Part shown: in pieces, positions 20,505 through 30,247 of the stretch
Position numbering within the stretch: position 1 is the first letter of the stretch
Layout of the letters: every line of letters begins with the position of its first letter
Assembly (NCBI GenBank): GCA_016794925.1
Contig: JAEUIW010000008.1
Coordinates: 62,001 to 126,000, forward strand
Direction of reading: 5' to 3'
DNA: 64,000 nucleotides
Source: Phycisphaerae bacterium
GTDB taxonomy: Bacteria > Planctomycetota > Phycisphaerae > Phycisphaerales > UBA1924
Notes under the pieces: generated by a model
What the model saw: only the letters and a program-made list of their open reading frames with translations
Told to the model about the DNA's origin: nothing
Databases searched by the model: none
Position numbers and translations under genes: made by a program

Positions 20505-23500
20505 ATGCTCGCACGCCGTTCTCTCGGTCCGCGTTCCCGCTCCACACACGCCCGCCTCAGCCACGCCGTCGCCGGCTCGCTCGCCACGCTCGCCGCGTTG
20601 CTCGGCTGCAGTTCCGCTCGCGGCCAGAGCAACCCCTGCGAGCATGAGCTGACCTCATCGGGGCCCAACGGCTGCGAGAGCATGAACTTCCGCTCCGCGG
20701 GCTGGTTCCACGCCCGCGGCTGGTACACCCACATCGACCCCGAGGGGAACAACAACTGGCCCAGGAACTTCGGCAACGACGATCATCGGGGCTTCCGCCT
20801 CAAGCTGGAACTGGCGCGCATCCCGAGCGTGGACTTCCCGCCAATGAGCACCGATGCGTTGCGGGCCCCGCTCCCGCTCGTGCCCTCCGACGCCGCCACG
20901 CTGCGCCGCATGAACACGTTGCCCGAGCGCCCCACGCTCAACGGCACGCTGGACCTCATCACCGGCGTGCCGCTCGCCGCCGAGGTCGATCTCGAACTGC
21001 CCTTCGGGGGTGCCGTGTTCCGGCACGTCCGTACGTACTCCGATGTTCCGCCGGCCAACGAGGCGCCCAACGGCTCCGGCACGCTCCGTGATCCGAGCGT
21101 GGACCGCCCCATCGGCGAGACCGACCTCTGGGACTGGAACGGGCGGGGATGGTCGATGGGCGAGAGCCCGATCCTGATCCTCGACGCGGCGATGTGGTCG
21201 CAGCAGCTCCCCATCACCCCCAGCGGCTCCGGAGCATCGACCCGCTATCAGAACCCCATCCGCTGCTACTTCCAGCCCGACGGCCACCACACCGTCCCCT
21301 TCACCCTCGACGAGGCCAGCGGCCTGTACCGCGCGCCGGAGTGGTTCGACGCCGAACTGACCCACACGGGCGGCGTGTGGGACACCGCCTCGCGCACATG
21401 GTCCACGCGCCCGACGGCGTACACGGTGCGGCTGCACCGCGGCGCGATCATCTACTCCTTCACGCCCTCGTACACCGACGTACCCATCGCCCGGAAGCTC
21501 GACCCGAGCGACCTCACCCCGCCCTACGACGTGATCGGCGTCGATGCGCACACGCCCCCCCGCTACTACGACGGGGCGGCGAGCGGCTGGATGGACGACT
21601 GGAGCGAGGCCGGCAACGACGGCGGCTACGGCGTGCCGCACTATGCGCTCGCCACGCGCATCGAGGACCGCAACGGCAACGCGATCCTCATCGACTATAC
21701 CCCGAGCGATCGCCAGTTCCTCGGCGCCACGATCAACGGCGAAGACCCTTGCACCATCTGCGCCCAGAATGTCAACGAACGCGGCCAGATCGCGCGCGTC
21801 CGCCTCGTCACCGGCCGCGGCGCCGCCAACCCCGAGGGCACGCACACCGCCTGGACGCTCCTGTACGCATACCGGGCCTTCGCGTGGCACGCGCCGAACG
21901 ACCCGCTCCACTCTCCGCTGGACACGTGGCGGCTCCCGCACATGCTGCACTCGATCCACGTGTACCCGGGTGAGCAGCCCAACCCCTTCACGGGGAGCAA
22001 CACCATCCCGGCGGCGCAGTTCTGGAGCGCGACCACGCTCGATGACGTCGACGCGATCGACGCCGCGACCATCTTCAACCTCCCTTCCGGGTGGACGCAC
22101 GACCTGCGATACATGTACGCGGAGACCTGGGACCCGGGTTCCTTCTGCGAGCGCCAGGCGCCGCCCACGTACGCGGCGCTGCGGAACAGCATCCTCAACT
22201 CCTACGACAACTGCCCCTGGCCGATCCAGCCGCTGCTGATGAAAGCAACGGTGCGCACCCGCGCACAGCCCACGGACCCGACGCTCCCGCAGTGGTCGGC
22301 CCGCCACACGCTGTACCGCTACGCCACCCACGCCTACGGCGGGTACTCGCCCACGATCGGGCTGCGCGCGGTCTTCGGCCCGGGCAAGATCGACGAGATC
22401 CTGGCCCGGCTCAGCCAGGGCGGCGGCACGCCGACCACGGTCAACGAACTGATGGGGCTCGATGACATCGACCCCGTTCCGGCCATCGGGACGTCACCGG
22501 CCACGACCGTGCTCGCGCTCGCGGACGTCTCCCTGTCGCACCTCGTCCCGCCCGGCGCGGGCGGCCCGGTCGGCGAAACACGCCTCTGCCGCGCCGCCGA
22601 TGCGATCCAGGCCGACCGCAAGCGCCTGCACCTCATGAGCCAGACCCGATACGCCGATCAGCGCGCCGCGGCGAGCGGGACCGGGTACCACGAAGTCTTC
22701 TCCTTCATGCACCGGCCGGCGGACCTCGCCGCCCCGACCGAGCCGCAGCGTTGCATCGACACCTGGACCAACCGCACCGACCTCGCCGCGATCAAGTCCT
22801 CGGTCTACCGCTTCCCGTTCTACGCGATCGCGAATCACTCCGTCGGGGGCGGCGCGGAGCACTTCGACCCCAGGCAGGCCGTCCCGCCGAACCTGTCCGA
22901 GCCGACCTGGATCACGGTCATCGATTCGTACGACACCCTGGCCGAGCTCCCCGGCACCTCGCCCCTGGAGTCGTCGACGGAGGACCTCGCCCGCACGCGT
23001 CGGGTCGTCAAGGTGAACGCCCTCGGGGTGGTCCTGCAGGACATCACGTACGACGTCACCGGCTCCGTCCTTTCTTCCACGGGCTACGCCGAGCACTACA
23101 TCTACGACACCGCGTACCCGTGGAGAGTCAAGGAGAAACGCACCAAGGGATGGTCCTCGACCCTGGGGGGCAACGGCGATCCCGACAACGACGGCCTCAT
23201 CTACACCTACGCGTACTGGAATCGCCCCCCGGGCAGCCTCGCCGAGGCCCGCGACGGCCTCGCCGAGATCACGGGCATCTCCATCAAGCGCGGCACTGCG
23301 GGCGCCGAGCGACCGCTCTCCCGCACCACCCGCCACCCGCACCGCCCGGAGCTCGTTCTCAGCGAGGAGCGGTTCCCCAACGAGGGCGACACCCAGACCG
23401 TCCAGGTTGTCAGCAGCGCCGAGTACGTGCTCGCCGAAGCCCCGGAAACACCGCCCAATCAGTGGAAGATGCTCGAACGCGCCCTGTACGGGGCCGAGGC

Positions 23501-26500
23501 CAGGCGTGACGCCACCAACGACCTCTATCGCTCGTTCGACCGCGAGTTCTACGACGACCACGGGCAGGTCAAGTGGCGCGGGTACGGCGGCGAAAGAAAG
23601 GCCGGCTCAGGCGCCTGGGAAACCGAGAGCCGCCGGATCGACTTCAACGCCTACCGCCCGGGCGGTGGACCGATCTGGTTCGCGGCGACCGACACCGCGC
23701 CCGGCGCGTCTTTCTCCCGCGCCAGCACAACGTACACGGTGGAATACCCCGCCCCGCCCGGCCTGACGCGCCTGGCGCCCGAGAGTCCAACCACGCGCAC
23801 CACGTTCTACTACTACGACGACCGCGGACCCAACTTCATCGTGTACCCCGACTGTCACCGCTGGGAGTTGCGGCGCGATGTCATCCCGGCCTCCCTCGAG
23901 CACCCCAACGGGCTTGAGATCGAATGGGAGTTGCCGTGCGCCGTGGGCGGTATCGGCGCGTACGCGCTCGACCACATCGGCAAGGTGACCAGGAGGACCA
24001 TCGACCCCGGAAAGGTCGAGTGGGTCTCGATCGCCATGTACCTCCCTCCCGGCCCGGGCCGATCGTGGCCCTCGGGCTCGATGGTCACGCCCAAGGGCAA
24101 GCCGGTCATCGCCATCACCGAATCGCCGCGCCGCGTGCTCAAGATCGAACGCGGCACGCTCCCCGTCAGCGGCAACAACTACCACTTCAACGACTTTACG
24201 GCCGAGGACACCGTCGAAGCCGGGTACACGCCGGACCATCGCCTCACAAACCTCAAGATCAAGGGCGACGAGGGGAGCGAACTCGAGGCACGCCTCGAAT
24301 ACGAGGGCGCCGGCGTGGTCCGGCGCGCCGTCGCCGCCGACGGGGCCGTCACCCGTCAGCAGGCGGACCCGCGGGGCCGGATCGTGCGCGTGTTCCAGGG
24401 GACGCTGGACACGCACTCGTTCTGGGCCCCGGGCGGCAACGACCTCACGGACAACATGATCCTCACCGAAAAACGCTACTACGGCGCGGGCGTCACCGAC
24501 GCCGATCAGTTGACCGCCGTGCGCCGCTACCGCGACAAGCCGACGCACCAGTATCAGCTGCCCACCGACCCGCCCGAGCCGGACCAGAGCAACGAGGACC
24601 TGATCGGCGACCTCGAACGCACCTTCTACGACTGGCGCATGCGCCCGGTGATCTCCGTCCGCTACGCCGCGGACGGCGCCACCCCCCTCCGCCACACCGT
24701 CACCTGGCTCGACAACCAGGACCGGCCCGTCCTCACCGCCGTGTACGGGGCGGTCGCCGCCATCCCCGCGGCCGTCAACCCCGCTCTCCGCGCGTCCGGC
24801 CAATCCCTGCCCACGCCCGCGGAAATCCTGGGGGCCACGCCCCGCCCCGCTTCGCTCGCCGAGTCCATCTACAACGCGCGCGGCGAAGCGGAAGAGCAGC
24901 GCGCGTACGACGTGGGCTGGAACGGCACGGGCGCCCCGTCCTGCCTGGCCACGATCACGCGCACCGATGAATGGGGCCGCGAGTCGTACACGCGCGCCCC
25001 CGGCGACGGCGAACGCCTCACGTCGTACGACGCCGCCGGCCGGGCCGTGCTCGTCCGGACCCTGGCCGGGGGCGTGGAGCTCGAGCGGGAGATCCGCTCG
25101 TTCAACGACTCCGATCTGGACGACAGCCAGGGGCTGGAGTACCCGCGCACCGAGACCCGCACCCGCACCCGCCTGCACGATGCCCCCGCCACGCCCGCGG
25201 ACCTCAACGACGGCCGCGGCAACTTCATCGAGACCTTCAGCGTCGCGTGGCGGAACACCGCCGGGCACGAGGTCGGCACACTGGACCTGGGCACCAACCT
25301 CGTGGCGCAGTCCGGCGGCTCCGCGCTCGACACCTTCACGCGCGGGCCGCAGCGGTCGCTTCTCCAAGAGCTGCGCACGCCGTTCTACTCCGTCAACCAC
25401 CTGGGAGAGATCAGCACCTCCCGGCCCGCCACGCTCCCCGACGGCCGCATCACCGGCGCCACCCACGACAACGACGGCCGGCCCCTCTTCACGCTCGACG
25501 ACCAGAACACCCTCACCGCCCACGCGTACGACGACCTCGGACGCCTCGCCCTCACCACCGAGAACGCCCGTGACGGCCAGACGCCCAAGCGCCTGACCGC
25601 CTACGCCTACGACAAGGGGCACCTCGTCGCCGTCGGGGCCATCCGCGGCGACGCGAAACCCGCCGACTGGCTCTCGCCCGCATCGGGCGAGCCCGTGAAC
25701 CGCTTCCTTTACGCCACCGGCGAGGGCGCCGCGATGGTCGCCGCGACCATCGTCGATCGCAACTTCAACCCCATCTCCATCAGCCCCTCGCTCGTCCGCG
25801 AGGTCCGCCTCGCCGGGCAGCGCGGCAGCGGCCCGACCTACGCCTACCAGTACTACGCCGACGGCTCCATCGCGTCGCGCACCGACGCCCGCGGCGTGCG
25901 CTTCCGTTACTCCTACGACGAGCTCGGACGCCTCGCCCGCATCGCCGTTGATTACCCCGCCACCGAGCCGCCGCCCGACGGCCCGCCCGACGACCGCATC
26001 CGCGCCATCCACTACACCTACGACGACCTCTCCGGCCGGCTGACGCTGGTGTCGGCCCGGTCCGTGGGCCCCGGCGGGCCCGTGGTGGCGGAGAACGCGC
26101 TCGAATACGACGCCCGCGGGAACCTCCTGAAGGAGGCCCAGGCCCACGGCGGGCCCGTCCTCGCGAACTCACCCGCCGTCGAGTACGAGTGGGGCTACGC
26201 CCCCTGGGCCGGCCCCGGCGCGGCGGGAAACTCCGACCGCCTGGAGCGCATGCGCTACCCCGCCCGCAACGGCGCCGCCGCGCGCCGGGTGCTGACCTAC
26301 GGCTACGGCGCCGCCGGATCGACCGACGACGACCTGGCACGCATCCGCGCCATCACCGACGACGCCATCGGCGCCGTCGCGGCCTACGTCTTCGCCGGAG
26401 AATCGCTCCGGGTCGGCTCGACCTTCGGGCCCGATCTCATCCGGCAGCGCTTCTGGGAGCCGTCCTCGGGCGGGGGAAGCGCCGGCGGCTACACCCACCT

Positions 26501-28556
26501 GGACCGCTTCGGCCGCGTGCGGAACCTGGCGTTCACCACCGGCCCGAACGACGCCGCGACGCTCCTGCGGCAGCAGGCGTGGTACGGGCTGAACGACCGC
26601 CGCGTCGCCACGGAACTGTCCCAGTCCAGCGCGAGCGCGAACCGATCGAGCGTGCTGGGGTACGACGGGCTGGAGCGTCTCGCGGCCGCGGACTACGGCG
26701 TGCTCGCGCTGGCGGGCGGGTACCCGAGCATCCCCAACGCCGCCCGCACCCTGGACTGGTCGCTGGACCGGCTGGGGAACTGGACCGGCGACCCCCTCGC
26801 CCAGCCCGTGGTTGCGGGGCGGGTGGAGGTGTCGGGCAACTCCACCGTCCGCATCACGCACGAGGTGGACGCGGGCAACGCCCTCACCAGCGTGGCCGTC
26901 AAGACCGGCGGTTCCGCGCCCGTGGTCACGCCCATCGTGTACGACCTGGCCGGGAACCTGGTCGCCGACGGGTCGCACCATTTCATCTATGACGCGTGGG
27001 GGCGGGTGGTGCGGGTCCAGGGCCGGGGCGGGCTCACCTTCGACGCCCACGGGCGTGTGAGCGGGGGCGTCGCGGGCGACTGGATCGCCTCGTACGGCTA
27101 CGACGCGCTGGGGCGACTGGCGCGGCGGCGGGGTCCCGTCGAGCCCGGCGGCGCCTTCGACCAGAGCCAGCGGGTCGAGGATTACTACTACGACGGGGCG
27201 CGGCGGATCCAGGAGGTGGCCCGCACCTTCCTGGTCGTGGTGGGCGATCCCGAGCCGGAGATGGGAGGTCCCGAGGGCGGCGGCGAGCCCGGCGGCGAAG
27301 GGGGCATGGTCCAGGCCGGCCAGCCCGAGGAAGGCGAACCGGGTGAGGGGGGAGGAACCGCCGCGGGCGGTGGGGGCGGTCCGCCCACGTTGCTGGGCAA
27401 CGTGCGCGAGTACCTGTACGGCCCCGGCGATGCGTTGTGGGGCAGCGGCGGGGTCGATGAGTTCATCGCGCAGGTGGATGAGGGCGGCACGGTTCTCTGG
27501 ACGCTGCAGGACCTGAGCGGCGATGTCGCCGCGATCTGCCGCCAGACGTCCGGGGGCACCCCTCCCACCCCCCCGACCGCCTCGGTGATGCAGCAGTGGA
27601 CGTACGAGCCGTACGGCCGCGTGCTCACCCGCGATGTGCTCAGCGGCGGGGGTGGAGGAGGGGGTGGGGGTGGCGGTGGCGGTGGGGGTGGGGGTGGGGG
27701 TGGTGGAGGGGCCTGGAACGGCGCGGCGTACTCCAGCCGCGTGGGCCACAAGGGCCTGTTCTTCGAACGCCTGGACGCTCCCGTCACCGGCGCCAACGCC
27801 CTGCCGCCGCTGACGCCCGAGTCCGTCGGGTTCAGTTTCGTCCGCAACCGCATCCTGCTGCACCAACACGGACGCTGGGCCCAGGGCGATCCCAACGCAA
27901 CCGGGGCGCCGCTGCTCGCGGCGAACTTCTTTCACGGCGCCAGCGTGGAGGCGAACACGCCCCGCCTGCACATCGAGGCGATGTTCACCGACGGGTCGAA
28001 TCGGCACGCGTACTGCCGCGGCGAGCCGGTGACGTTGGCAGACCCGCTGGGACTGACCACCTATGCCGATATCGGCGCGGCGGGTGGCCTCCAGGGCATG
28101 CTGAACGCGATGCTGCAGGGGGCGCTCAGCACCGGAAACGCAATCGGCGGGATGGTCACGAACTGGGGAGCGTGGACCGTCAGCGTGGCCGCGAACGGAT
28201 CGCTTGTGGTCGGCATGAACTTCGACGCCGCTATGATGTTCGCGTCGCACGCCGACGCGGAATACAACCGCTGGGTTGACGAATTCAGCGACTGGTCGAA
28301 CGCGAGCGCCGGCGGTGGTGGCGGCGACGACGGCAAGCCGCCTCGCCCGCTGCAGACGGGAGGACACAGGATCACCGATCGAACCCTGAGAGAATTGAAT
28401 CTGACGCGCGATCAGGTCCGGGAAGCGATTGACGCGTTGAAAAAATCGGAGGGCCGCGGACATGCAAATCATAATCAAACGATTTGGAGCAATGGTGCCG
28501 TCACAGATTCGAACACCGGCAGATATCTTGGCAATCTGCGCGACTACATTCATTGA
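20505..28556 (+). CDS. Giant RHS/YD-repeat polymorphic toxin protein
   Basis: A 2683-residue protein. The N-terminus has a signal sequence with a lipobox-like ALLGC at residue 35, so it may be exported by Sec and possibly lipidated; no PAAR or VgrG domain is seen. Residues about 130-2400 carry many YD/RHS repeats (for example FRYSYDELGRLARIAVDYP and LTYGYGAAG) which form a cocoon. The RHS core runs from the conserved LYGPGDALWG to YCRGEPVTLADPLGL near residue 2520, interrupted by a pure glycine run. After the core comes a variable tip of about 165 residues, the last 65 in lower-GC DNA (HRITDRTLRELNLT to LGNLRDYIH), which is the presumed toxin. The toxin family is not recognised. The DUF4279 gene downstream is the likely immunity partner. 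Confidence 0.9.
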   Translation: MLARRSLGPRSRSTHARLSHAVAGSLATLAALLGCSSARGQSNPCEHELTSSGPNGCESMNFRSAGWFHARGWYTHIDPEGNNNWPRNFGNDDHRGFRLKLELARIPSVDFPPMSTDALRAPLPLVPSDAATLRRMNTLPERPTLNGTLDLITGVPLAAEVDLELPFGGAVFRHVRTYSDVPPANEAPNGSGTLRDPSVDRPIGETDLWDWNGRGWSMGESPILILDAAMWSQQLPITPSGSGASTRYQNPIRCYFQPDGHHTVPFTLDEASGLYRAPEWFDAELTHTGGVWDTASRTWSTRPTAYTVRLHRGAIIYSFTPSYTDVPIARKLDPSDLTPPYDVIGVDAHTPPRYYDGAASGWMDDWSEAGNDGGYGVPHYALATRIEDRNGNAILIDYTPSDRQFLGATINGEDPCTICAQNVNERGQIARVRLVTGRGAANPEGTHTAWTLLYAYRAFAWHAPNDPLHSPLDTWRLPHMLHSIHVYPGEQPNPFTGSNTIPAAQFWSATTLDDVDAIDAATIFNLPSGWTHDLRYMYAETWDPGSFCERQAPPTYAALRNSILNSYDNCPWPIQPLLMKATVRTRAQPTDPTLPQWSARHTLYRYATHAYGGYSPTIGLRAVFGPGKIDEILARLSQGGGTPTTVNELMGLDDIDPVPAIGTSPATTVLALADVSLSHLVPPGAGGPVGETRLCRAADAIQADRKRLHLMSQTRYADQRAAASGTGYHEVFSFMHRPADLAAPTEPQRCIDTWTNRTDLAAIKSSVYRFPFYAIANHSVGGGAEHFDPRQAVPPNLSEPTWITVIDSYDTLAELPGTSPLESSTEDLARTRRVVKVNALGVVLQDITYDVTGSVLSSTGYAEHYIYDTAYPWRVKEKRTKGWSSTLGGNGDPDNDGLIYTYAYWNRPPGSLAEARDGLAEITGISIKRGTAGAERPLSRTTRHPHRPELVLSEERFPNEGDTQTVQVVSSAEYVLAEAPETPPNQWKMLERALYGAEARRDATNDLYRSFDREFYDDHGQVKWRGYGGERKAGSGAWETESRRIDFNAYRPGGGPIWFAATDTAPGASFSRASTTYTVEYPAPPGLTRLAPESPTTRTTFYYYDDRGPNFIVYPDCHRWELRRDVIPASLEHPNGLEIEWELPCAVGGIGAYALDHIGKVTRRTIDPGKVEWVSIAMYLPPGPGRSWPSGSMVTPKGKPVIAITESPRRVLKIERGTLPVSGNNYHFNDFTAEDTVEAGYTPDHRLTNLKIKGDEGSELEARLEYEGAGVVRRAVAADGAVTRQQADPRGRIVRVFQGTLDTHSFWAPGGNDLTDNMILTEKRYYGAGVTDADQLTAVRRYRDKPTHQYQLPTDPPEPDQSNEDLIGDLERTFYDWRMRPVISVRYAADGATPLRHTVTWLDNQDRPVLTAVYGAVAAIPAAVNPALRASGQSLPTPAEILGATPRPASLAESIYNARGEAEEQRAYDVGWNGTGAPSCLATITRTDEWGRESYTRAPGDGERLTSYDAAGRAVLVRTLAGGVELEREIRSFNDSDLDDSQGLEYPRTETRTRTRLHDAPATPADLNDGRGNFIETFSVAWRNTAGHEVGTLDLGTNLVAQSGGSALDTFTRGPQRSLLQELRTPFYSVNHLGEISTSRPATLPDGRITGATHDNDGRPLFTLDDQNTLTAHAYDDLGRLALTTENARDGQTPKRLTAYAYDKGHLVAVGAIRGDAKPADWLSPASGEPVNRFLYATGEGAAMVAATIVDRNFNPISISPSLVREVRLAGQRGSGPTYAYQYYADGSIASRTDARGVRFRYSYDELGRLARIAVDYPATEPPPDGPPDDRIRAIHYTYDDLSGRLTLVSARSVGPGGPVVAENALEYDARGNLLKEAQAHGGPVLANSPAVEYEWGYAPWAGPGAAGNSDRLERMRYPARNGAAARRVLTYGYGAAGSTDDDLARIRAITDDAIGAVAAYVFAGESLRVGSTFGPDLIRQRFWEPSSGGGSAGGYTHLDRFGRVRNLAFTTGPNDAATLLRQQAWYGLNDRRVATELSQSSASANRSSVLGYDGLERLAAADYGVLALAGGYPSIPNAARTLDWSLDRLGNWTGDPLAQPVVAGRVEVSGNSTVRITHEVDAGNALTSVAVKTGGSAPVVTPIVYDLAGNLVADGSHHFIYDAWGRVVRVQGRGGLTFDAHGRVSGGVAGDWIASYGYDALGRLARRRGPVEPGGAFDQSQRVEDYYYDGARRIQEVARTFLVVVGDPEPEMGGPEGGGEPGGEGGMVQAGQPEEGEPGEGGGTAAGGGGGPPTLLGNVREYLYGPGDALWGSGGVDEFIAQVDEGGTVLWTLQDLSGDVAAICRQTSGGTPPTPPTASVMQQWTYEPYGRVLTRDVLSGGGGGGGGGGGGGGGGGGGGGGAWNGAAYSSRVGHKGLFFERLDAPVTGANALPPLTPESVGFSFVRNRILLHQHGRWAQGDPNATGAPLLAANFFHGASVEANTPRLHIEAMFTDGSNRHAYCRGEPVTLADPLGLTTYADIGAAGGLQGMLNAMLQGALSTGNAIGGMVTNWGAWTVSVAANGSLVVGMNFDAAMMFASHADAEYNRWVDEFSDWSNASAGGGGGDDGKPPRPLQTGGHRITDRTLRELNLTRDQVREAIDALKKSEGRGHANHNQTIWSNGAVTDSNTGRYLGNLRDYIH
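27246..27396 (+). repeat. Gly/Glu/Pro-rich linker inside the RHS core region
   Basis: A low-complexity stretch of about 50 residues, made of GGPEGGGEPGGEGG-like and EEGEPGEGGG-like runs, interrupts the RHS protein just before the conserved LLGNVREYLYGPGDALW segment. It reads as a flexible linker. The coding bases are purine-rich and imperfectly repeated. Confidence 0.7.
27643..27714 (+). repeat. Polyglycine-coding GGN tract in the RHS gene
   Basis: GGN codons, mostly GGG and GGT, encode an uninterrupted run of more than twenty glycines (between DVLS and AWNGAAYSS). The bases are long G runs separated by single T, C or A. Loss or gain of whole codons would change linker length without shifting the frame. 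The tract immediately precedes the 29-base segment that is copied at 30271-30299. Confidence 0.85.
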
Positions 28557-28579: not shown

Positions 28580-29059
28580 GTGACACATCACGATAAACCG
28601 CCATCTCAGTGCATACCATCTATGAATGTAACTCATGCGGATATCTACGTTGCTGGGGTTGAATTAGATCCCGCGCAGGTAACATCATCGCTCGGGATCG
28701 CTGGGCATTGGAGCCATGCTAACGGGGACACATATATCGGCAGAGCATGGACCGGTGCCGCGACCATCGAAACATATACTCAAGGCGTCTGGCATCTGTA
28801 CTCACATCGGTACATCACCTCACGGGATCCCGCGGACCACCTGCGTACACTGCTCGCGTTGATCTACCCGCTCAAGACTGAATGGCTACGGTTTGTTGAT
28901 TCTGGCTTTCATACTGGAATATATGTGATCCATGCGCGGCAGCGCGATGAATCTGGATATACGATCGATGTTGACTCGCTCCGGCAACTCGCCGAGCTGC
29001 GCATGTGCGTTTCCATTACATGCACTATTATCGAGTCTCACGAAGAAGATGCGTCGTAA
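28580..29059 (+). CDS. DUF4279-like immunity protein
   Basis: A protein of 159 residues from GTG 28580, which has AGGAAG six bases upstream, or 145 residues from ATG 28622, which aligns better with the usual family start. The body matches the DUF4279 pattern: a strand plus VELDPAQVTSSLGI near the N-terminus, then GVWHLYSHRYI and a C-terminal half with a FVDSGFHTGIYVIH-like strand. DUF4279 proteins are common immunity proteins next to polymorphic toxins. The gene begins 23 bases after the RHS stop and should neutralise the RHS tip toxin. Its DNA is clearly less GC-rich than the RHS body, consistent with exchange as a cassette. Confidence 0.75.
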   Translation: MTHHDKPPSQCIPSMNVTHADIYVAGVELDPAQVTSSLGIAGHWSHANGDTYIGRAWTGAATIETYTQGVWHLYSHRYITSRDPADHLRTLLALIYPLKTEWLRFVDSGFHTGIYVIHARQRDESGYTIDVDSLRQLAELRMCVSITCTIIESHEEDAS

Positions 29060-29381
29060 CTTGTTGTATCCCGTAGACGTATCACGGCATCTCGGACGCG
29101 ACTTCCTGTACGGGCCCGGCGATGCGTTGTGGGACGGCGAATCTGTCCCGGGATCGAAGGGGAAGGTCCGGCCGGATATCATCGTGTTCAACCCCAAGAA
29201 CGGTCTTTACACGGTGATCGAGGTGATCGATACGCACGGCGGCACAGACTGGAAAAACCGCGTGCGCAGGATCCAAGGCGCCTTCGGTCCCAACGCGAGC
29301 GTTTCCACGATGAAACTCGATCGCGGCAACAAGGACGCTGTGTTCAATCGCCTGGGGATCGGCAAGCGGAAGGGCCGCTGA
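29049..29381 (+). CDS. Orphan RHS tip fragment with a second toxin-like domain
   Basis: A 110-residue frame that overlaps the end of the DUF4279 gene. Residues 19-28 repeat the RHS core motif LYGPGDALW from a 29-base copy of the main gene. The remainder (GSKGKVRPDIIVFNP, TVIEVIDTHGG, NRVRRIQGAFG) looks like a nuclease-type tip: the RPD...IEV arrangement recalls PD-(D/E)XK toxins but the expected lysine after the glutamate is absent. It has no secretion signal or cocoon, so it is probably a displaced, silent tip that could be recombined onto the RHS gene. The start codon is uncertain because no clear ribosome binding site is seen. Confidence 0.6.
   Translation: MRRNLLYPVDVSRHLGRDFLYGPGDALWDGESVPGSKGKVRPDIIVFNPKNGLYTVIEVIDTHGGTDWKNRVRRIQGAFGPNASVSTMKLDRGNKDAVFNRLGIGKRKGR
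29105..29133 (+). repeat. Copy of RHS core segment 27413-27441
   Basis: Twenty-eight of 29 bases are identical to 27413-27441, the segment coding LYGPGDALW in the RHS core. The same reading frame is kept in the downstream fragment. It marks the left border of the second toxin cassette. Confidence 0.88.
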
Positions 29382-30247
29382 TGCCCGCGCGGACGTACAA
29401 CAGCGAGGGGCCGATCGTCTGTTTGGTCGCCTTTTCGGAGGCTCCGCTCATTTCGCGATCAGGTTTCTGCAGCGCGATGATCCAATCGCTAATTAATTGT
29501 TTTGGTGATCATCGAGTCACTGTTGCTGCGTTTGAAGCACAATCTCCAAACCGACCCAAGTGGCCGTACCGTTATCTATCAGACATATTAATGTCACATC
29601 CGTGGTCAACTTTACATATGGCTGAAGAGTTGTATTTTTTTACGCGGCACTTTAATTTAGATATTGACGACATACCGCCCAATCAAGACCGCTCGGACCG
29701 TTGCTGCACGTGCATCACGGCCCTGCCCTTGTGGCGGGCCAAGGGGACCGGGCCGGCGCTGACGCCGCGCGCCTTCGCCACCGCGTTCTTCCGGGCCGTC
29801 GATTCCGCGGGCGGCTGCTACTACGGGCTCGCCGACGCGGATGAACGCGATGCGTTGAACGGCTTTGGGTATTACATGGCCAGTCGGGCTGGGGGCCGCC
29901 CGTTCACCTGGCGGCAGGACATCGAACGCATGGACTGGCTGCTCTCGGGCGAGCAACGCCGCACCCGCATCCGGCACGACGCCTGGGTCCAGTACCTCCC
30001 CGCGCCGCTGCTGGCCAGGCTCGACCACGCCGGGGACTTCGTGGAACGCTTCGTCGATCGACGCACGCCCGATGAGGACGGCACCCAGTTCGGCGAACGC
30101 TTCCCCACCGGCGGGGCCGTCCTGGGCGTGTGCGAGGACCCCCTCACGGAGATGTTCGGCATCGGCGCCTACGCCCAAGCCGACCGACCCGACCTCCGCA
30201 GCGCCGTCTGGCTGCGGCACGAGTTCCGCAAGGCCGGCATGCTGTAG
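29381..30247 (+). CDS. Putative immunity protein of the second cassette
   Basis: A 288-residue protein whose ATG overlaps the stop of the orphan toxin fragment (TGATG), so the two are translationally coupled, as toxin-immunity pairs often are. No signal peptide, membrane helix or recognised domain is seen. The first 105 codons (to about 29695) are AT-rich, with stretches such as AATTAATTGTTTTGG, whereas the rest is as GC-rich as the chromosome. This abrupt change inside one frame suggests a chimeric gene formed by recombination. The C-terminal part contains TWRQDIERMDWLL and FVDRRTPDEDG. Immunity function is inferred only from position. Confidence 0.6.
   Translation: MPARTYNSEGPIVCLVAFSEAPLISRSGFCSAMIQSLINCFGDHRVTVAAFEAQSPNRPKWPYRYLSDILMSHPWSTLHMAEELYFFTRHFNLDIDDIPPNQDRSDRCCTCITALPLWRAKGTGPALTPRAFATAFFRAVDSAGGCYYGLADADERDALNGFGYYMASRAGGRPFTWRQDIERMDWLLSGEQRRTRIRHDAWVQYLPAPLLARLDHAGDFVERFVDRRTPDEDGTQFGERFPTGGAVLGVCEDPLTEMFGIGAYAQADRPDLRSAVWLRHEFRKAGML

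What the first reader, a model, noticed from the sequence alone, without database searches (positions are those of the whole stretch)
28360..28556. Unrecognised 65-residue toxin at the RHS tip
The tip beginning HRITDRTLRELNLT and ending LGNLRDYIH is encoded in lower-GC DNA and is paired with a DUF4279 gene. Conserved-looking residues are the paired His/Asn (HANHN), a Trp (IWSNGAV) and Asp-x-x-x-Gly. I cannot assign it to a known family; it may be a new small RNase or other toxin.
Basis: partly seen in the sequence, partly recalled or inferred. Interest (0 to 1): 0.55.

Follow-up and report, generated by a model that had tools for sequence, protein, structure and literature searches.

The report
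New small toxin with DUF4279 partner
The last 70 residues of this giant RHS protein belong to a small, unnamed family of probable bacterial warfare toxins that also arms a type VI secretion effector of E. coli, each intact member lying next to a gene of the same kind (DUF4279) that probably protects the producer; how the toxin harms its target is not yet known.

Summary
A 2683-residue RHS protein (20505-28556) ends in a low-GC tip (51% against 71% for the RHS body) followed by a DUF4279 gene. The domain starts slightly earlier than stated, at about 28344 (70 residues, opening RPLQTGG).

It matches nothing in Pfam, NCBIfam, PHROGs, PADLOC or the PDB. In all five intact cases, the window included, the next gene is DUF4279. 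A profile of the four relatives without the window picks out this tip alone in its genome (E 1.8e-5).

AlphaFold2 gives a compact strand-helix-helix-three-strand-helix domain (pLDDT 82 for the window, 91 for Frischella) without a match to a solved fold.

Most likely it is a contact-delivered antibacterial toxin neutralised by DUF4279 in the cytoplasm. RNase activity is an inference: the only named DUF4279-paired toxin met here, Ntox33, is a predicted RNase, and sequence tests do not show the tip to be Ntox33. A new toxin family within a known kind of system; activity untested.

The parts
20505..28556 (+). RHS-repeat polymorphic toxin protein, 2683 aa; N-terminus looks like a secretion signal (read by eye)
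   Evidence: ORF; RHS_repeat PF05593 E 4.4e-7; Rhs_assc_core TIGR03696 E 1.9e-4, 21.9 bits, below its cut-off of 32.5
28041..28055 (+). DPLGL, end of the RHS core; start of the variable C-terminal region (role as core end recalled)
   Evidence: position computed; the core match ends there
28344..28556 (+). toxin domain, 70 aa (RPLQTGG...LRDYIH), plus stop
   Evidence: family alignment; profile without the window finds only this tip in the genome; AlphaFold2 pLDDT 82.2, pTM 0.65; GC 0.51
28622..29059 (+). DUF4279 gene, 145 aa, presumed immunity protein, acidic (pI 5.5)
   Evidence: PF14106 30.7 bits, cut-off 25; same partner in 5 of 5 intact family members; pI
29097..29381 (+). displaced RHS core remnant (29097-29139, 88% identical to 27405-27447) joined to another tip-like stretch: orphan tip next to the cassette
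   Evidence: weak BsuBI_PstI_RE match E 0.028, below cut-off

Best explanation
The tip is the toxin domain of a polymorphic RHS toxin and the DUF4279 gene is its immunity gene; together they are one exchangeable cassette, acquired by replacing the end of the RHS gene. Proposed working: the RHS shell carries and shields the domain, a cut after the RHS core frees it, it enters a neighbouring bacterium, and it acts in the cytoplasm; DUF4279 binds it in the producer and in kin. In E. coli the same domain rides a type VI PAAR spike instead. My best guess for the activity is a small RNase using the loop His and the helix Lys. Shown here: family, partner, mobility of the cassette, two delivery contexts, a confidently predicted small alpha+beta domain. 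Inferred: toxicity, neutralisation by DUF4279, cytoplasmic target, RNase activity (about 0.4 on its own; toxin with DUF4279 immunity about 0.85).
For: Same domain at the C-terminus of a Tox-PAAR-like protein in E. coli, in the operon PAAR - VgrG - DUF2169 - effector - DUF4279, present in 119 of 5426 complete E. coli genomes. Further relatives in Frischella, a Cyclobacteriaceae RHS protein and G918; next gene DUF4279 in 5 of 5 intact members, E 4.3e-7 to 5e-20, and beside decayed copies in Rosenbergiella (2 of 4 copies opened) and G834. Low GC of tip and partner and a displaced RHS core copy next door fit cassette exchange. Compact predicted fold. DUF4279 also follows Ntox33, a predicted RNase, in 4 of 4 loci opened (+39+61, 47, 48, 50) and in a Salmonella Rhs protein (PMC13304343, passages). 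The DUF4279 protein shows no obvious export signal by eye, which fits a cytoplasmic target.
Against: No toxicity or enzyme data. No fold match. No significant profile similarity to Ntox33 (22 of 300 shuffles reach the observed score). The window copy has lost much of the block HGRILDNGDY that the four relatives share, so it may differ in activity or be inactive. DUF4279 is not always beside a toxin: of 28 loci read by eye among 30 fetched from the phylum, only 3 had an RHS or HINT tip directly upstream, one of them the window.
Confidence: 0.6

Rival explanations
1. The tip is a very divergent branch of Ntox33 (PF15533): same small fold and activity, same DUF4279 partner, sequence signal lost.
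For: Similar size (65 profile positions against 70 residues) and the same partner in 4 of 4 Ntox33 loci opened. A third DUF4279-paired tip (L031) compares weakly with both: 0 of 300 column shuffles reach the score in either comparison.
Against: No Ntox33 match in Pfam at E up to 1 for any family member scanned; the HxxK motif of Ntox33 is absent; direct profile comparison at shuffle level; the L031 bridge is marginal, the best shuffles score almost as high (19.22 against 19.59, and 21.37 against 21.61).
Confidence: 0.25
2. A cytoplasmic toxin, but not an RNase: it cuts DNA, or binds and blocks a protein or a cofactor.
For: No catalytic motif of a known nuclease was recognised and no fold match; the E. 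coli and Cyclobacteriaceae tips are not basic (pI about 7).
Against: At 70 residues it is small for most enzymes other than RNases (recalled); Ntox33, with the same partner family, is listed as a predicted RNase (PMC3482391).
Confidence: 0.3
3. The window copy is a decayed toxin: the cassette is kept for immunity and the tip no longer works.
For: Six-residue deletion and loss of much of the HGRILDNGDY block that four relatives share; decayed copies with intact DUF4279 exist in Rosenbergiella and G834.
Against: Frame open to the natural C-terminus, and LQTGG, helix Lys, Asn-Gly turn and LGNLRDY are kept; fairly confident fold.
Confidence: 0.15
4. Ordinary RHS C-terminal sequence without toxin function, with DUF4279 beside it by chance.
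For: DUF4279 often occurs without a toxin tip.
Against: Same family at the C-terminus of a type VI effector and of another RHS protein, with the same partner in 5 of 5 intact members.
Confidence: 0.03

Closest known systems
Ntox33 / polymorphic toxin type 33 (PF15533) with DUF4279
   Same: C-terminal tip of about 65-70 residues, at the end of RHS proteins in G291 and Salmonella, next gene DUF4279
   Different: No profile match, no HxxK motif, direct profile comparison at shuffle level
E. coli Tox-PAAR-like (PF13665) type VI effector WP_000829599.1 with DUF4279 WP_000594486.1
   Same: Homologous C-terminal domain and DUF4279 partner
   Different: Carried by a PAAR spike rather than by RHS; keeps the HHGRILDNGDY block and six more residues between the helices
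DUF4279-paired tip after HINT in L031 (unnamed)
   Same: Helical half, then a Gly-turn hairpin and a Leu-Gly-Ser-Leu end; DUF4279 next
   Different: Homology not established (weak profile comparison); not in Pfam or NCBIfam

Membership tests
RHS polymorphic toxin with exchangeable tip and immunity gene | RHS repeats and core ahead of the tip | tested here: met
   PF05593 E 4.4e-7; TIGR03696 E 1.9e-4 but below its cut-off
RHS polymorphic toxin with exchangeable tip and immunity gene | Tip differs in base composition and also occurs on other carriers | tested here: met
   GC 0.51 against 0.71; same tip on a type VI PAAR protein and on another RHS protein
RHS polymorphic toxin with exchangeable tip and immunity gene | Conserved neighbour gene that neutralises the tip | tested here: inconclusive
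   DUF4279 next in 5 of 5 intact members; neutralisation not testable here
RHS polymorphic toxin with exchangeable tip and immunity gene | Toxicity of the tip | not testable with these tools
   needs expression
Ntox33 (PF15533) | Profile match | tested here: not met
   none at E up to 1 for the window tip, the E. coli tip or the members of A6, nor in G000
Ntox33 (PF15533) | [DN]xHxxK and DxxxD motifs (PMC3482391, passage) | tested here: not met
   window tip has neither (read)
Ntox33 (PF15533) | DUF4279 as neighbour (habit rather than definition) | tested here: met
BECR-fold RNases (barnase, EndoU, colicin E5/D, RelE) | BECR fold | tested here: inconclusive
   no Foldseek hit at E 0.001 or better for either model; second look limited to Foldseek's own matches
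DUF4279 (PF14106), for the partner gene | Profile match over the gathering score | tested here: met
   30.7 bits, cut-off 25

The most novel reading that the evidence does not exclude
The tip founds a new small toxin family with a fold of its own, used by RHS and by type VI PAAR carriers in several phyla, and forms with Ntox33 and the L031-type tips one larger group of very small RNases that DUF4279 proteins neutralise.
Probability: 0.3. Interest if true: 0.6.

Novelty: new variant of a known kind. Interest (0 to 1): 0.42.

Why it matters
It gives a probable identity and immunity partner to an unannotated effector tip carried by 119 of 5426 complete E. coli genomes. It adds to the case that DUF4279, a domain of unknown function, includes an immunity group for very small toxins. 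A 70-residue domain with a confident model and a known partner is easy to test at the bench.

Tried and rejected
Sequence libraries: Pfam, NCBIfam, PHROGs, PADLOC and PDB gave only chance-level matches for the tip and its relatives. Weak superoxide dismutase and TIGR01681 matches were rejected as chance.

Relatives by single-sequence search: the 80 of 200 genomes 'matched' at E up to 1 are noise apart from the window (next best E 0.0125, scattered in unrelated frames; not opened one by one). With the two-row alignment only G000 matched at E 0.01 among 392 genomes of the phylum. The first genome-contig scan (339 stretches, 0 relatives) and the viral scans gave no relative; the 11 and 15 pattern hits read are unrelated. 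Phage records: no relative. In one search, 4 of 394 genomes matched; G812 (E 0.007) showed no such tip when read and was dropped.

The three plasmid matches other than E. coli (Leisingera, Halobaculum, Paraburkholderia) and the Rhizobium ones have E of 0.7 or more and were not followed. A search with the window's DUF4279 in plasmids gave nothing.

Folds: Foldseek on both models found nothing at E 0.001 or better in the PDB, nor in BFVD for the Frischella model; the best second-look Z was 3.4 for the window model (7npe, ParA2) and 2.7 for Frischella (6z4w, FtsE), noise level.

The paper on E. coli UMN026 (PMC11114119, abstract and passages) describes another effector (DUF4123 chaperone, no PAAR). 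PMC9424270, cited for DUF4279 as immunity, is not held. Library searches for DUF4279 (3 papers), Ntox33 (3), the two E. coli accessions (none), LF82 with PAAR (2, listing only) and the type 33 name (1) showed no description of this family; most subscription journals are not in that library.

Full report
What is there. The ORF 20505-28556 (2683 aa) is an RHS protein (RHS_repeat E 4.4e-7; RHS core model TIGR03696 E 1.9e-4, below its own cut-off). Its core ends at DPLGL (28041-28055). The last 70 residues, from 28344, are the tip in question; 65 bases after its stop lies a 145-residue DUF4279 gene, 28622-29059. The base composition falls from 0.71 in the RHS body to 0.51 in the tip and 0.52 in DUF4279 and recovers only near 29700. 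Behind DUF4279, bases 29097-29139 repeat RHS bases 27405-27447 at 88% identity, joined to another tip-like stretch: probably the remnant of an earlier or alternative tip, as expected where RHS ends are exchanged.

Is the tip a family? By itself it has no library match: Pfam, NCBIfam, PDB, and, with relatives, PHROGs, PADLOC, Pfam, NCBIfam and PDB again. A translated search of 72,556 plasmid records gave one meaningful lead, at only E 0.04: the C-terminus of an E. coli PAAR-like protein whose next gene is DUF4279. That shared neighbour is what made the weak match credible. The E. coli gene pair is in 119 of 5426 complete genomes, in the one chromosome opened in the order PAAR, VgrG, DUF2169, Tox-PAAR-like effector, DUF4279. 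A pattern scan of one genome per species for 84,980 species then gave three more loci: Frischella japonica, a Cyclobacteriaceae metagenome genome and Rosenbergiella collisarenosi (46 stretches matched, 4 were relatives, 3 loci). A profile search of 394 genomes of Frischella's order added G918 and a frameshifted copy in G834; a further match, G812 at E 0.007, did not hold up on reading. The downstream genes of L086, L087, L088 (two), L095 and L096 are all DUF4279, E 1.6e-16 to 1.5e-21. Counting intact tips only, DUF4279 follows in 5 of 5: window, E. coli, Frischella, Cyclobacteriaceae, G918.

Independent test of membership. A profile made from the four relatives without the window was run on the window's genome: one match at E up to 10, this tip, at 27 bits and E 1.8e-5. 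In a script the tip scored 25.8 bits; the best of 20,000 shuffles of the same residues scored 13.3. The relationship is therefore well supported, though the window copy is the most divergent member: 43% identity to E. coli and 29-34% to the Frischella and Cyclobacteriaceae tips, with a six-residue deletion between the helices.

What is conserved. Shared by window, E. coli, Frischella and Cyclobacteriaceae tips: L-Q-x-G-G at the start, a Thr and Leu of helix 1, Ala, Leu and Lys of helix 2, a loop His, Ile, Asn-Gly, Gly, Asn and Tyr near the end. G918 has NFHG where the others have DHHG, so the His before Gly, not the first of the pair, is the constant one; the window's His fits that place only if one inserted residue is allowed, as. 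Four relatives share HGRILDNGDY, of which the window keeps only part.

Structure. AlphaFold2 on the window tip (three-row alignment) gave pLDDT 82.2 and pTM 0.65; on the Frischella tip 91.4 and 0.78. Both show strand, helix, helix, three strands, short helix. No solved structure matches at E 0.001 or better, no viral model matches the Frischella one, and the second look at Foldseek's matches stayed at noise level. This does not show that the fold is new.

What it does. The genomic logic is that of a toxin and its immunity gene: variable C-terminal tip on two unrelated carriers, RHS and type VI PAAR, with the same neighbour every time, decayed tips beside intact neighbours (Rosenbergiella, G834), and foreign base composition. 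DUF4279 also follows Ntox33 in all four loci opened here: G291, Pseudomonas amygdali, Deinococcus and Cronobacter, and a Salmonella Rhs-Ntox33 protein is reported with a DUF4279 immunity gene (PMC13304343, passages). Ntox33 is listed as a predicted RNase of uncertain metal dependence with motifs [DN]xHxxK and DxxxD (PMC3482391, table passages; PMC13129497, passage). By analogy the tip may be a small RNase; nothing here shows it directly.

Is it Ntox33? Not by sequence. No profile match, motif absent, and direct profile comparison is reached by 22 of 300 column shuffles. A third DUF4279-paired tip, in L031 after a HINT domain, compares weakly with both our family and Ntox33; in each case 0 of 300 shuffles reach the observed score, but the best shuffles come within 0.4, so this bridge is a hint only.

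Limits. DUF4279 alone is not proof of a toxin: of 28 loci read among 30 fetched, only 3 had an RHS or HINT tip directly upstream, one being the window (judged by eye). The two DUF4279 proteins of window and E. coli are themselves far apart (one short BLASTP segment, E 0.003). The family was sampled through motif patterns and a few hundred genomes, so its true spread is unknown. I found no toxicity, binding or enzyme data in what I could search.

Noticed in passing
window 29097-29381: RHS core remnant (88% identical to 27405-27447) fused to another tip-like stretch with RPDIIVFNPKNGLYTVIEVIDT; weak BsuBI_PstI_RE match (E 0.028), perhaps an orphan nuclease tip.
   Followed up: partly
window 29381-30244: 288-aa ORF without Pfam match whose first 300 bases are low in GC and the rest high, as if its start were recently replaced.
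   Followed up: partly
window 27643-27702: Gly-rich tandem repeat inside the RHS protein (a run of more than 20 glycines).
   Followed up: no
L031 3-1421, next gene DUF4279: HINT-linked tip ending ASERLHAIKRSAGMRGADNVLFDRTGNVYSPTTREWLGSLTQGG, paired with DUF4279, not in Pfam or NCBIfam; a relative in L083 has a different-looking downstream gene.
   Followed up: partly
L088 4310-5611: Rosenbergiella: two decayed copies of the tip, each beside an intact DUF4279 gene; four tip remnants matched in this genome.
   Followed up: partly
L002 and L115: E. coli XYEH3783 carries the same PAAR/DUF2169/effector/DUF4279 module on its chromosome and on a 33.7-kb plasmid record with the same protein accessions; duplication or assembly question.
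   Followed up: no
L025/L064, L079, L080, L081: Ntox33 is followed by DUF4279 in all four loci opened, although the 2012 survey table lists no immunity partner for it.
   Followed up: yes
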